A stretch of 64,000 bases of DNA from Burkholderia metallica. Lineage in GTDB: Bacteria > Pseudomonadota > Gammaproteobacteria > Burkholderiales > Burkholderiaceae. Within the stretch, counting starts at the first letter, position 1; each line of letters starts with the position of its first letter. The stretch spans positions 992,001-1,056,000 of the forward strand of contig NZ_CADFDB010000001.1 of the NCBI RefSeq assembly GCF_902832845.1, given 5' to 3'. The notes below the pieces were generated by a model that saw nothing but the letters and a program-made list of their open reading frames with translations, was not told where the DNA came from and ran no database searches. A program made the translations under genes and the position numbers. Positions 24,015 through 27,199 of the stretch are shown here, piece by piece.

Positions 24015-24488
24015 ATGCATGAACCGGTTCTGGATCGCCTCGATCGCCACTTGCTCGCGATCCTCCAGGAGAACGGCCGCGCGTCGAACCTCGATCTGGC
24101 GAAGGCGGTCGGCCTGTCGCCGGCCCAGACGCTGCGCCGCCACCGGCGGCTGGAGGAAATCGGCGCGATCCGCCGCTATGAAACCCGGCTGTGCCCCGAC
24201 ACGCTCGGGTTCGGCGTCACCGCGTTCGTGCACGTGACGATGGAGCGCGGGCATATCCGCGACCTGTCGAAATTCCAGAAGCTGGTATCGGATCTCGCGC
24301 AGATTCAGGAGTGCTTTTCGGTGACGGGCGACATCGACTACGTGCTGAAGGTGGTCGCGCACGATCTGAAAGGCTTGTCACGGTTCCTGCTGGAGACGCT
24401 GATGCGGATTCCCGGCGTGAGCGGCGTGCATTCGAGCGTGTGTCTCGACGAGATCAAGTGCACGAGTGCGATGCCGGTGGACGCTTAA
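24015..24488 (+). CDS. Lrp/AsnC-family transcriptional regulator
   Basis: A 157-residue Lrp/AsnC regulator. It has the N-terminal helix-turn-helix (LDRHLLAILQENGRASNLDL and VGLSPAQTLRRHRRLEEIGA) and the C-terminal RAM ligand-binding domain (ECFSVTGDIDYVLKVVAHDL). It is divergent from the permease-tyrB pair, which it most likely controls in response to an aromatic amino acid. Confidence 0.9.
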   Translation: MHEPVLDRLDRHLLAILQENGRASNLDLAKAVGLSPAQTLRRHRRLEEIGAIRRYETRLCPDTLGFGVTAFVHVTMERGHIRDLSKFQKLVSDLAQIQECFSVTGDIDYVLKVVAHDLKGLSRFLLETLMRIPGVSGVHSSVCLDEIKCTSAMPVDA

Positions 24489-24511
24489 CGCCCGACGCTT
24501 CAAATCTGTTC

Positions 24512-24592
24512 CGGCAATACCGATTACGAAATCGGGCGATTGGATAAGGTCGGACGCCGATGTCGTCGCCCATTTCGCGTCCGGTATTGCCG
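24512..24592. repeat. 11-bp perfect inverted repeat flanking 59 bases
   Basis: CGGCAATACCG (24512-24522) and CGGTATTGCCG (24582-24592). It lies at the junction where GC-rich core sequence gives way to the AT-richer PAAR/Tae4 patch. It could be a fold-back structure or a relic of a small mobile element; no duplication was seen. Confidence 0.5.
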
Positions 24593-24708
24593 ATTGGTGC
24601 CGCCCCGCCACTTCGTCGCGAATTCCGCAAAAATTCGTACCCATCCAATAGTCAACTTGCGTACTGTCGGCGAACCTCTTCGCTTCCTGAACGTACCGGG
24701 AATCGACC

Positions 24709-25230
24709 ATGCGCCGAGCGGCGGTAAGAGACAGCGATAGGACTACAACGAGCGGACTCGTCATTGCAGTCACGTCCACGATATTCGACAACGGCAAGCA
24801 TGTCGCCATAGACGGAGACAAAGCGACATGCGGTAATTGCAAAGGCGCGTTCAGGATTCTCAGCAGCGCCAGGCGTATGAGTTGCCATGGCCGCAGGGTC
24901 GTTCTAGATGGTGACCCGGTTCTTTGCCCGTGTGGACAGATCAAAGTCGTTGCCGGTGCCGACAGCAAGATTTTCCATGAGGAAGGCAACGCATCCCGGA
25001 ACGTACAGACGACGGGCGCAGTACCGCCCGTTGCATCGACCTTGCCGTCAGCCTCACTGGCCCGATACGACGAGAAGGTCAAGTGCATTTCGCGTACGTC
25101 TGCGCTCGCCGGATATCCCTACTACATTGAGACGGCGGACGGCCGTACGTATTCGGGGCGCTTTGACTACCGTGACGATCTTCCTCGGGTTGACACCATG
25201 GCAGCCGCCGACAATTACGTCGTCCATTAG
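24709..25230 (+). CDS. PAAR-domain protein, T6SS spike tip adaptor (probable premature stop)
   Basis: A 173-residue PAAR protein. It begins MRRAAVRDSDRTTTSGLVIA and contains the repeats typical of Burkholderia PAAR tips: STIFDNGKHVAIDGDKATCG (with a CGNC), and RRVVLDGDPVLCPCGQIKVV. A C-terminal cargo-linker segment follows (YYIETADGRTYSGRFDYRDD). PAAR proteins cap the VgrG spike and carry effectors. The frame ends in TAG at 25228-25230, but the next 11 codons stay open (GDDAIAKQYGA) and end in TAA at 25264, three bases before the amidase ATG. The residue before the tail is normally Trp in this family, so TGG to TAG is the likely change. Confidence 0.8.
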   Translation: MRRAAVRDSDRTTTSGLVIAVTSTIFDNGKHVAIDGDKATCGNCKGAFRILSSARRMSCHGRRVVLDGDPVLCPCGQIKVVAGADSKIFHEEGNASRNVQTTGAVPPVASTLPSASLARYDEKVKCISRTSALAGYPYYIETADGRTYSGRFDYRDDLPRVDTMAAADNYVVH

Positions 25231-25269
25231 GGTGACGATGCAATTGCAAAACAGTACGGGGCGTAACCG

Positions 25270-25901
25270 ATGCCGAATCCGCCCACGAAAGTCCGCACTA
25301 ACGGCACGCCGCTCTCCGAAAAAACGTACAGCTCAAAGCACTGACATTTCAGCAGCTCTGGCACGCCTACCCGGGGAATGATCCGTACGACGACCCAACT
25401 GGCGAGTACGAAAATCAATGTGCGATCCGGATGAGCGTGACGTTTCATGCGGCCGGGAGCGACATGAAGTCGTTTTCGCAAAAAGTCCTGAAGCCGATGC
25501 CAGGAAAACGAACGTTGGGACGCTTGCTTCTTGGTGGTAAAGCAACTGCGACTCGCGCTTATGAACTGGCCGAATGGTTGAAGCTCCGCCCATTCCTCGG
25601 CCTCGGAAATCCGGAACGTATCACTGGCCCGGATTGGCAGGACAAGATAAAAGGGCGAACCGGTATCGTCTATTTTTTCGGCTACTGGCGACAGGAAGGA
25701 GGTTCGGCTGACGCATTGAGCGGCGGACATATCGACCTGTGGAACAAGGACACGCTCACGCCCTCTGCCGTATCATTCTGGCGGTTTCGCATCGGCGTGC
25801 GATCCATGATCAACCCGTTCGATTATCTTCGGGGCCGACGCGGAAATTGGTACTCGGACCTGGCCGATTCGAAAGAAATCCTGTTCTGGGAAGTTGAATG
25901 A
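25270..25901 (+). pseudogene. T6SS peptidoglycan amidase, Tae4 family, frameshifted
   Basis: Two frames together make a Tae4-type amidase of about 210 residues. The first, from ATG 25270, reads MPNPPTKVRTNGTPLSEK. The second, from 25323, reads NVQLKALTFQQLWHAYPGND, then the catalytic segment EYENQCAIRMSV, with Cys codon 25419-25421. The catalytic His is in SGGHIDLWNKDT (codon 25728-25730). The A6 run 25319-25324 would join the frames if it had seven A. No ATG, GTG or TTG exists in the second frame before the cysteine; the first ATG (25431) is 12 bases after it, so a simple 156-residue product would lack the nucleophile. Family: Tae4 cleaves D-Glu-mDAP bonds in the periplasm. It could be a pseudogene, a sequencing error or a slippage-rescued gene. 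Confidence 0.75.
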
Positions 25902-26233
25902 AACGACTGGCTGCCACCCTCGGCGGATTCATATGGGGTTTGCTGGTTACCTGGGCATCCCTTTACACGTTCAGCCGGATTCACTGGCCCGCTACGCCGT
26001 CACATTCGACCGGCTGTAACGACATGGAACACTGCAGCCCTCATGGGATATTCATCGTCGGTCTGCTGGCGCTCACCTTGTGGCCGTCGATCCTCTTTGC
26101 CGTCATTAACGCGTTCGCTTATCGGCGCTGGTCGGCGCGTAAATGGAAAGTCATGTTCGCTGCCACGACACTATTTGTCGTCTTGTTTCATCTCGCGAGC
26201 TACGCGGCACCCGCGCTAGGCCTAGTCAGCTAG
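25898..26233 (+). CDS. Small membrane protein coupled to the Tae4-type gene
   Basis: A 111-residue protein with about three hydrophobic helices (LGGFIWGLLVTWASLYTF, IFIVGLLALTLWPSILFAV, MFAATTLFVVLFHLASYA). Its ATG overlaps the amidase TGA (ATGA), so it is translationally coupled and belongs to the same transcript. No family is recognised. The position is where immunity genes usually sit, but known Tai4 proteins are periplasmic and soluble, so this is a candidate accessory or immunity protein only. Its base composition is AT-richer than flanking genes, like the amidase. Confidence 0.65.
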   Translation: MKRLAATLGGFIWGLLVTWASLYTFSRIHWPATPSHSTGCNDMEHCSPHGIFIVGLLALTLWPSILFAVINAFAYRRWSARKWKVMFAATTLFVVLFHLASYAAPALGLVS

Positions 26234-26287
26234 GCAAGACACCGGGGCGGCGCAAGGCTGCGTGAAACCAGCAAGCTTCACCCATAC

Positions 26288-27199
26288 TCACCGCACCACC
26301 TCGAACGCACTGATCAACAACGCCCCCGCCGCGATCACCACGCAACCGGCCGCCCGGCGCGGCGTCAACCGCTCGCCGAGATACACGCGTGCAATCAGCG
26401 CCGCGAACACCACACTCGTTTCCCGCAGCGCCGACACCGGCCCCATCGGCGCGCGATCCATCGCCCAGATCACGATGCCGTACGCGAGCGCCGCGAACAC
26501 GCCGCCACCCGCGGCCTTCGCCGTCTCGCCGGGCTCCTGCGTCAGCCGCAGCGGCCCCGCGCGCAGCCGGTAATACGCGGCCATCATCGCGCCCGTCAGC
26601 ACGAACATCCACGCGGTATAGCCGACCGTGCTGCCGCTTTCCCGCACGCCGATCCCGTCGACCACGCTGTAGGCCGCGATCGACACGCCGGTCGCGAACG
26701 CGGTCGGCAGCACCTGCATCATCCGGTGCTTCGCGCCGCGCCCGCGTTCCAGCCCGATCGCCATGATGCCCGCGCAGATCAGCACGAGCCCGCCTTGCGC
26801 ACCGGCACTCAGGTGCTCGCCCGCGAACGCCGCCGCGCCGAGCGTGACCAGCAGCGGCGCGGTGCCGCGCGCGACCGGATACGCGACGCTCAGGTCGCCG
26901 TGCTCGTACGCACGCACCAGCAGCAGCGTATAGACGACGTGCAGCACGGCCGATGCGACGACATAGAGCCAGCTCGCGGGCGTGATCGGCGCCGCGGCCG
27001 GCAGGAACAGCAACGCGAACAGCCCGATCGCGATCTGCAGCACCGTGGCCGAGCGCAGCCGGTCGCCACTGCTGCGCACAAGCGCGTTCCATGACGCATG
27101 GAGGAACGCCGCACACAGCACGGCAAACAGAACGGGAATCGGCACGCTGAATACTCGCTGACGGGCGGCCACGCGAAATCGTCGCCGCAGGGCGTTCAT
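26288..27199 (-). CDS. EamA/DMT-family transporter
   Basis: Drug/metabolite transporter with two EamA repeats and about ten helices, 303 residues. Recognisable segments are LCAAFLHASWNALVRSSGDR in the first half and GPVSALRETSVVFAALIARV ... FLGERL-like in the second (YLGERLTPRRAAGCVVIAAG). The substrate is unknown; this family often exports amino acids or metabolites. The ATG at 27199 lacks a good ribosome site; a GTG about 50 bases downstream is a possible alternative. It converges on the small membrane gene at 26233. Confidence 0.75.
   Translation of the reverse strand: MNALRRRFRVAARQRVFSVPIPVLFAVLCAAFLHASWNALVRSSGDRLRSATVLQIAIGLFALLFLPAAAPITPASWLYVVASAVLHVVYTLLLVRAYEHGDLSVAYPVARGTAPLLVTLGAAAFAGEHLSAGAQGGLVLICAGIMAIGLERGRGAKHRMMQVLPTAFATGVSIAAYSVVDGIGVRESGSTVGYTAWMFVLTGAMMAAYYRLRAGPLRLTQEPGETAKAAGGGVFAALAYGIVIWAMDRAPMGPVSALRETSVVFAALIARVYLGERLTPRRAAGCVVIAAGALLISAFEVVR

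What the first reader, a model, noticed from the sequence alone, without database searches (positions are those of the whole stretch)
24709..25901. PAAR-Tae4 T6SS module carrying two apparent lesions
The PAAR gene ends at a TAG (25228-25230) where the family usually has Trp; eleven sense codons and a TAA follow, 3 bases before the amidase ATG. The amidase ATG (25270) frame and the catalytic frame differ by one base at A6 (25319-25324): seven A would join MPNPPTKVRTNGTPLSEK to NVQLKALTFQQLWHAYPGND. The catalytic Cys codon (25419) and His codon (25728) are intact downstream, so the enzyme looks otherwise undamaged. Either the toxin is being inactivated, or the assembly has a homopolymer error, or polymerase slippage on A6 makes some active protein.
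Basis: partly seen in the sequence, partly recalled or inferred. Interest (0 to 1): 0.85.

Follow-up and report, generated by a model that had tools for sequence, protein, structure and literature searches.

The report
Disarmed toxin beside intact immunity gene
In this Burkholderia-type genome a gene for a toxin injected into rival bacteria is broken in two places while the probable antidote gene next to it is intact, and related species show the same toxin worn away from its front end, sometimes down to a short stub that carries the antidote gene's translation signal.

Summary
The PAAR gene stops at a TAG where 46 of 46 other PAAR genes of this type have Trp. The Tae4 start-bearing frame and its catalytic frame are out of register after codon 18. 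Best explanation: real, fairly recent inactivation of a T6SS amidase effector, with its downstream immunity-type gene (25898-26233) kept. The same site holds the module in 7 genomes of different species: immunity ORF open in 7, toxin whole in 3, PAAR whole in 2. This genome's only other Tae4 copy has a nonsense codon before its Cys. dN/dS of the toxin's 3' part rises in broken lineages (0.06 to 0.15); that of the immunity gene does not. Genus-wide, 10 of 56 Tae4 copies are broken; no place found keeps the 5' part without the 3' part. Three more immunity genes keep only a toxin stub of about 40-100 nt with their Shine-Dalgarno sequence. Slippage on A6 and assembly error are unlikely. It is a clear new case of a known process: an orphan immunity gene arising by effector decay.

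The parts
24015..24488 (+). Lrp/AsnC-type regulator; left flank of the module's site (not part of the module)
   Evidence: Pfam PF01037 and PF13404; conserved neighbour in relatives
24709..25230 (+). PAAR-domain protein gene, ended early by TAG at 25228-25230
   Evidence: PF05488 1.1e-13; Trp at this column in 46 of 46 other genes
25231..25266 (+). residual 3' PAAR codons after the TAG (11 sense codons and TAA)
   Evidence: homologous to the PAAR tail of relatives
25270..25344 (+). start-bearing frame of the Tae4 gene, 24 codons, stops early
   Evidence: N-terminal match to the whole B. arboris copy
25319..25324 (+). A6 run at which the two frames part
25302..25901 (+). catalytic frame of the Tae4 amidase, open, no ATG/GTG/TTG before the Cys
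   Evidence: PF14113 5.9e-24
25419..25421 (+). Cys codon (catalytic role recalled, from no call)
   Evidence: NQC(A/T) context in relatives
25728..25730 (+). His codon (catalytic role recalled, from no call)
   Evidence: GH(I/V)(D/N) context in relatives
25431..25901 (+). 156-codon open frame from the first in-frame ATG, without the Cys
   Evidence: also open in G037 and G044
25888..25893 (+). GGGAAG, probable Shine-Dalgarno of the immunity gene, inside the toxin's last codons
   Evidence: position read; GGGA within 18 nt upstream in 28 of the 29 copies looked at
25898..26233 (+). immunity-type gene: 111 aa, three hydrophobic segments, Cys pair in the first loop; its ATG overlaps the toxin's TGA
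   Evidence: open in 7 of 7 copies at this site
26288..27199 (-). EamA-type transporter gene (name recalled, from no call); right flank of the module's site
   Evidence: conserved neighbour in relatives

Best explanation
This is a PAAR-Tae4 effector module of a type VI secretion system that has been inactivated in this lineage while its immunity-type gene is kept. Shown: PAAR loses an invariant C-terminal motif by a stop codon. The toxin's start-bearing frame is out of register with the frame holding Cys and His, so no common start codon reads the active site. The downstream 111-aa gene is intact, overlaps the toxin's stop codon and has a Shine-Dalgarno-like sequence in the toxin's last codons. 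Inferred: that protein is the Tae4 immunity protein; losing the PAAR carrier or the toxin is tolerated or favoured, while neighbours armed with Tae4 keep selecting for immunity; the cell is therefore disarmed but immune. Because the immunity gene's translation signal lies in the toxin's 3' end, decay runs from the PAAR side and stops there.
For: Same site in 7 genomes: immunity ORF open 7 of 7, toxin in one frame from its start 3 of 7, PAAR whole 2 of 7, with differing lesions. Trp at the TAG column in 46 of 46. Only other Tae4 in the genome also broken, with its immunity ORF open. Branch model: toxin 3' ORF dN/dS 0.060 background vs 0.151 on three broken tips (LRT 7.05, p 0.008; second topology 5.61, p 0.018); immunity gene 0.26 vs 0.22 (p 0.58). 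Genus: 10 of 56 Tae4 copies broken; 0 of 46 PAAR-tail rows and 0 of 51 toxin-5' rows lack a toxin 3' row within 700 bases. Three further immunity genes keep only a short toxin stub with TTTTGGGA. Three TssB/VipA matches suggest that T6SS clusters are present.
Against: dN/dS on broken tips is still well below 1, so the lesions are recent or the frame keeps some use. With the window alone, or G037 plus G044, as foreground the test is not significant (p 0.10-0.19), and I did not correct for the six tests. Immunity function is inferred from position only, and the family matches no Tai4 model in Pfam. Immunity genes decay too: G061's second copy is out of frame near its end and several tandem copies are partial. 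G050 lacks GGGA before its open immunity ORF. G043 lacks PAAR but has a whole toxin. No sister strain of the same species was available.
Confidence: 0.82

Rival explanations
1. Assembly or sequencing error at the A6 run (and perhaps at the TAG): the module is really intact.
For: A single-base register difference at a homopolymer is the classic error (recalled); reads were not available and the assembly has 37 contigs.
Against: The TAG is a substitution-type lesion at an invariant Trp. The second Tae4 copy has its own nonsense codon. The T6 run beginning at 25673 lies in the open catalytic frame. Other genomes carry different lesions at the same site. dN/dS is raised on broken tips.
Confidence: 0.1
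2. RNA polymerase or ribosome slippage on A6 makes some full-length active toxin, as for tssM of Citrobacter rodentium.
For: A T6SS gene rescued by transcriptional slippage exists (PMC4256274, passages). The catalytic frame is the -1 frame relative to the ATG frame (own reading).
Against: The run has 6 A against 11 in tssM and 9 in the bacterial cases named in a passage of PMC5009743. G043 has six A at the same place in one frame. dN/dS is raised, and PAAR is truncated as well.
Confidence: 0.05
3. The Cys-less 156-codon product from ATG 25431 is itself made and useful, for example by carrying ribosomes to the overlapped immunity gene or as a decoy.
For: The frame from this Met stays open in the window, G037 and G044, and dN/dS is 0.15, not 1. 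The stop/start overlap is kept.
Against: Recent lesions explain the open frame without any function. Elsewhere the toxin is worn down to about 20 codons (G058) or a stub while the immunity gene stays open.
Confidence: 0.06

Closest known systems
Orphan immunity genes left by effector displacement in Vibrio cholerae (PMC5361080; passages seen)
   Same: Effector lost, immunity gene often kept; the authors' model has an effector 3' end shifted back beside older immunity genes.
   Different: There, inserted effector-immunity modules replace old effectors; here the toxin decays in place by stop, frameshift and deletion, with no new module found beside it.
Salmonella Typhi immunity islet SAIDI-1 (PMC7400221; passages seen)
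   Same: Orphan immunity genes with degraded effector remnants in the same islet.
   Different: An islet of many immunity genes; here a single pair, seen at several stages of decay.
Tae4-Tai4 pair BCAM1464-BCAM1465 of Burkholderia cenocepacia (PMC6612558; passages seen)
   Same: Tae4 followed by a putative immunity gene, away from tssI/VgrG clusters.
   Different: No lesion is mentioned in the passages seen; I did not compare its sequence with the window pair.
Transcriptional frameshifting of Citrobacter rodentium tssM (PMC4256274; passages seen)
   Same: An interrupted T6SS gene with an A run near the break.
   Different: 11 A against 6; slippage was shown there, and I found nothing that supports it here.

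Membership tests
Tae4 amidase effectors (PF14113) | match to the family profile over its length | tested here: met
   5.9e-24, profile 1-125 of 125
Tae4 amidase effectors (PF14113) | Cys and His of the active site (catalytic role recalled) | tested here: met
   both codons in the catalytic frame, context found in relatives
Tae4 amidase effectors (PF14113) | one open frame from a start codon through Cys and His | tested here: not met
   first ATG/GTG/TTG of the catalytic frame is 25431, after the Cys; the ATG frame stops at 25344
Tae4 amidase effectors (PF14113) | peptidoglycan amidase activity | not testable with these tools
   none
PAAR proteins (PF05488) | match to the PAAR profile | tested here: met
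   1.1e-13
PAAR proteins of Tae4 modules | C-terminal WG(D/E)(D/E) motif | tested here: not met
   46 of 46 others have it; the window has TAG at the Trp
Orphan immunity gene after effector decay | immunity-type ORF intact beside a broken effector | tested here: met
Orphan immunity gene after effector decay | immunity gene under purifying selection where the toxin is broken | tested here: met
   dN/dS 0.22 on toxin-broken tips vs 0.26 background, p 0.58; the tips include time before the lesions
Orphan immunity gene after effector decay | protection against Tae4 | not testable with these tools
   none
Tai4 immunity proteins | sequence match to a Tai4 family (that Pfam holds one is recalled) or solved Tai4 structure | tested here: not met
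   no Tai4 family among the 12 listed for 18 members at E<=0.5; the best is MARVEL in 5 of 18, 2e-4; 4 PDB hits at E 0.38-0.71, none Tai4
Transcriptional slippage gene | long homopolymer (9-11 A in the cases seen) kept out of frame in relatives | tested here: not met
   six A; G043 reads six A in one frame

The most novel reading that the evidence does not exclude
The immunity gene's ribosome-binding site is written in the toxin's last codons, and this sets the floor of toxin decay. Tae4 genes in Burkholderia therefore erode from the PAAR side, 5' to 3', and can end as a stub of some 40-100 nt that lives on as the leader of the immunity gene: a general, predictable route by which in-place decay, rather than gene transfer, gives birth to orphan immunity genes.
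Probability: 0.5. Interest if true: 0.5.

Novelty: new member of a known kind. Interest (0 to 1): 0.42.

Why it matters
In the papers seen here, orphan immunity genes are explained by gene transfer or module replacement. One site in seven genomes shows what look like steps of another route: carrier lost, toxin broken, toxin deleted, immunity gene left. It makes testable the question of whether immunity outlives attack because neighbours still carry the weapon, and it predicts where the toxin remnant should end.

Tried and rejected
Slippage on A6 was checked against relatives and the literature and rejected as the main reading. A function for the Cys-less 156-codon frame was considered; recent decay suffices. 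Ascertainment bias (the first toxin query was the 3' three quarters) was tested by separate searches with the PAAR tail and the toxin 5' piece of the whole B. arboris copy: no row lacks a toxin 3' row nearby. NCBIfam gave nothing for the three proteins at E<=0.1. The promoter scan of 24450-26350 found one promoter-like site, inside the toxin gene, as many as shuffles give; it also found 5 terminator-like sites against 1.8 expected, not followed up. The permease values were computed in the wrong frame and are replaced. An alignment of the PAAR ends took the wrong stretch for G033 and was not used.

Full report
Observation. Every coordinate in the finding that I checked is right. The PAAR ORF ends at TAG 25228-25230, 11 sense codons and a TAA follow, and the amidase ATG is at 25270. 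The ATG frame stops after 24 codons (25342-25344). The frame with the Cys codon (25419) and His codon (25728) is open from 25302 to 25901 and has no ATG/GTG/TTG before 25431. The pieces, searched apart, match PAAR (PF05488, 1.1e-13) and Tae4 (PF14113, 5.9e-24). The genome looks like one of the Burkholderia cepacia complex: a 9.8-kb flank is 91.5% identical to a B. arboris and 91.7% to a B. cenocepacia record.

The overlooked neighbour. At 25898-26233 lies a 111-aa gene whose ATG overlaps the toxin's TGA. Its product has three hydrophobic segments and a Cys pair in the first loop. It has no Pfam match at E<=0.1. Of 18 members of its family none matches a Tai4 model; five match MARVEL weakly, best 2e-4. 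Of 54 loci (window included) with a Tae4 hit that reaches the toxin's end, 33 have a gene of this family starting within 9 nt of that end. In some of the other 21 I saw a different ORF there; the rest I did not resolve. I take the protein as the immunity protein of this Tae4 type; this is inference from position.

The site in relatives. The module lies between an Lrp gene and an EamA-type gene. All 65 genus genomes give a match to the Lrp DNA, 61 of them at 79% identity or more. Comparing places, six genomes, the window included, have the module or its remnant beside that gene; B. arboris NZ_CP101525 makes seven. Of seven fetched genomes without the module there, six have Lrp and EamA directly next to each other and one (L079) gave no EamA match. 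States: B. arboris and G033, all three genes whole; G043, PAAR almost wholly deleted, toxin whole; window, TAG in PAAR and toxin out of register; G037 (B. seminalis LMG 24067), PAAR almost wholly deleted and toxin out of frame near its start; G044, PAAR and toxin 5' part deleted; G058, only the last 21 or so toxin codons left. The immunity ORF is open in 7 of 7, although in G037 its stop is lost and it runs 35 codons longer. The broken copies have different boundaries, so I infer that the lesions are mostly independent.

Is the TAG a lesion? I read the C-terminus of 46 other PAAR genes with a hit (the genome's own second one included). All 46 have WG(D/E)(D/E) where the window has TAG followed by the rest of the motif.

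The second copy. The genome has two Tae4 matches. The other, on contig C4, has a TAA four codons before its Cys, and its immunity ORF is open. Both Tae4 toxins of this strain are thus broken and both immunity ORFs kept. Three TssB/VipA matches suggest the secretion machinery is present; I did not check whole clusters.

Selection. A codon model on the shared 156-codon toxin 3' ORF (6 sequences) gives dN/dS 0.060 on background and 0.151 on the three broken tips (LRT 7.05, p 0.008; other topology 0.063 vs 0.142, LRT 5.61, p 0.018). With the window alone, or G037 plus G044, the difference is not significant (p 0.10-0.19). That is three foreground sets on two topologies, uncorrected. The immunity gene (7 sequences) shows no change (0.26 vs 0.22, p 0.58). 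The values suggest relaxed constraint over only a late part of the branches.

History of the module. Synonymous divergence from the window is higher in the module (toxin 3' part 0.64-1.39 over 5 comparisons, immunity gene 0.38-0.84 over 6) than in flanks (permease 0.10-0.13 over 4, EamA 0.20-0.28 over 3; Lrp 0.27-0.46 over 5), the ranges for Lrp and the immunity gene overlapping. G+C of the module is 57% against 68% for the window. In a tree of flanking genes from the seven carriers and six empty-site genomes, carriers are interleaved with empty sites. I infer that the module has a history of its own, by transfer or exchange.

Genus-wide decay. I examined 56 Tae4 copies: 53 of the 54 places (the one in G060 was not confirmed) plus three found later (B. 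arboris, G023 C3:1344722, a second one in G061 C111). A script flagged frames with both motifs. I overruled it for G044, whose 5' part is deleted, and read G012 C2 and G024 (a few masked letters) as whole. Ten are broken: window, own second copy, G037, G044, G058, G048 (C19), G050, G049, G023 (C3:1344722) and the second one in G061 C111. Beside them, eight have this immunity family as an open ORF, G049 has another, hydrophobic-looking frame open for at least 126 codons from an ATG at the toxin's end, and in G061 the immunity gene is itself out of frame near its end. Three more immunity genes (G023 C2, G029 C2:4326114, G040 C63) have no toxin beyond a stub: similarity to whole toxins falls to background within about 40 nt in G029, 60 nt in G040 and 100 nt in G023; of four whole-toxin control pairs three stay alike over 180 nt and one only in part, the comparison being without gaps. 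Separate searches with the PAAR tail (46 rows) and the toxin 5' piece (51 rows) of B. arboris found none without a toxin 3' row within 700 bases, whereas the 3' side is found without the 5' side. So the toxin is lost from its 5' side.

PAAR and toxin. Seven of the confirmed toxin places have no PAAR tail nearby: G043, G037, G044, G048 C19, G050, G049 and G058. Six of these seven toxins are broken; G043 is the exception. Some of these are single deletions that took both.

Why the 3' end stays. In 28 of the 29 copies I looked at (of 42 loci with a hit at this gene's start), GGGA lies within 18 nt upstream of the immunity start, inside the toxin's codons for Trp-Glu (the exception is G050, whose immunity ORF is open all the same). 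All three stub loci and the G061 remnant keep TTTTGGGA. The simplest account is that the immunity gene's ribosome-binding site must be kept. In whole toxins these bases are also held by the protein sequence, so only the decayed copies test this, and deletions that removed the site and the immunity gene together would not be seen.

Rivals. Slippage: six A here, 11 in tssM of Citrobacter rodentium (PMC4256274, passages) and 9 in bacterial cases named in a review (PMC5009743, passages); G043 has six A in one frame. Assembly error: possible for the run alone, but not for the other lesions. A useful Cys-less product: not excluded, not needed.

Known context. Retained immunity after effector loss is known from Vibrio cholerae arrays (PMC5361080, passages) and tse4/tsi4 in Pseudomonas aeruginosa isolates (PMC12594252, passages); a Salmonella Typhi islet holds orphan immunity genes with effector remnants (PMC7400221, passages). 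Two further papers on orphan immunity (PMC12247911, PMC10539506) were seen only as listing and start of abstract. In six paper searches I saw no report of this decay at this locus or of the stub rule; apart from the six papers whose passages I saw, only listings and starts of abstracts were seen.

Noticed in passing
L002 / L034 (G000 contig C4:17464-18407): The genome's second Tae4 copy carries a TAA four codons before its Cys; its immunity ORF is open.
   Followed up: yes
window 25898-26233 and relatives: Family of proteins of about 102-117 aa with two or three hydrophobic segments (up to five overlapping calls by the simple scan) and a Cys pair, next to Tae4, with no Pfam Tai4 match: perhaps a membrane-bound immunity type for this amidase.
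   Followed up: partly
L022, L091, L096, L097, L099 downstream of Tae4: Some Tae4 copies have a different short (75-84 aa) hydrophobic-looking ORF directly downstream, so immunity types may be swapped.
   Followed up: no
L007, L008, L011, L098, L104: Extra whole or partial immunity-type genes downstream of Tae4, some of them decayed.
   Followed up: partly
L036:6535-6997 (G037, B. seminalis): The immunity ORF has lost its stop and runs 35 codons longer than in relatives.
   Followed up: no
window 24489-26287: Module has 57% G+C in a 68% G+C window and sits in a site that is empty in six relatives examined.
   Followed up: yes
window 24450-26350: Five terminator-like sites against 1.8 expected from shuffles, two of them inside the PAAR and toxin genes on the + strand.
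   Followed up: no
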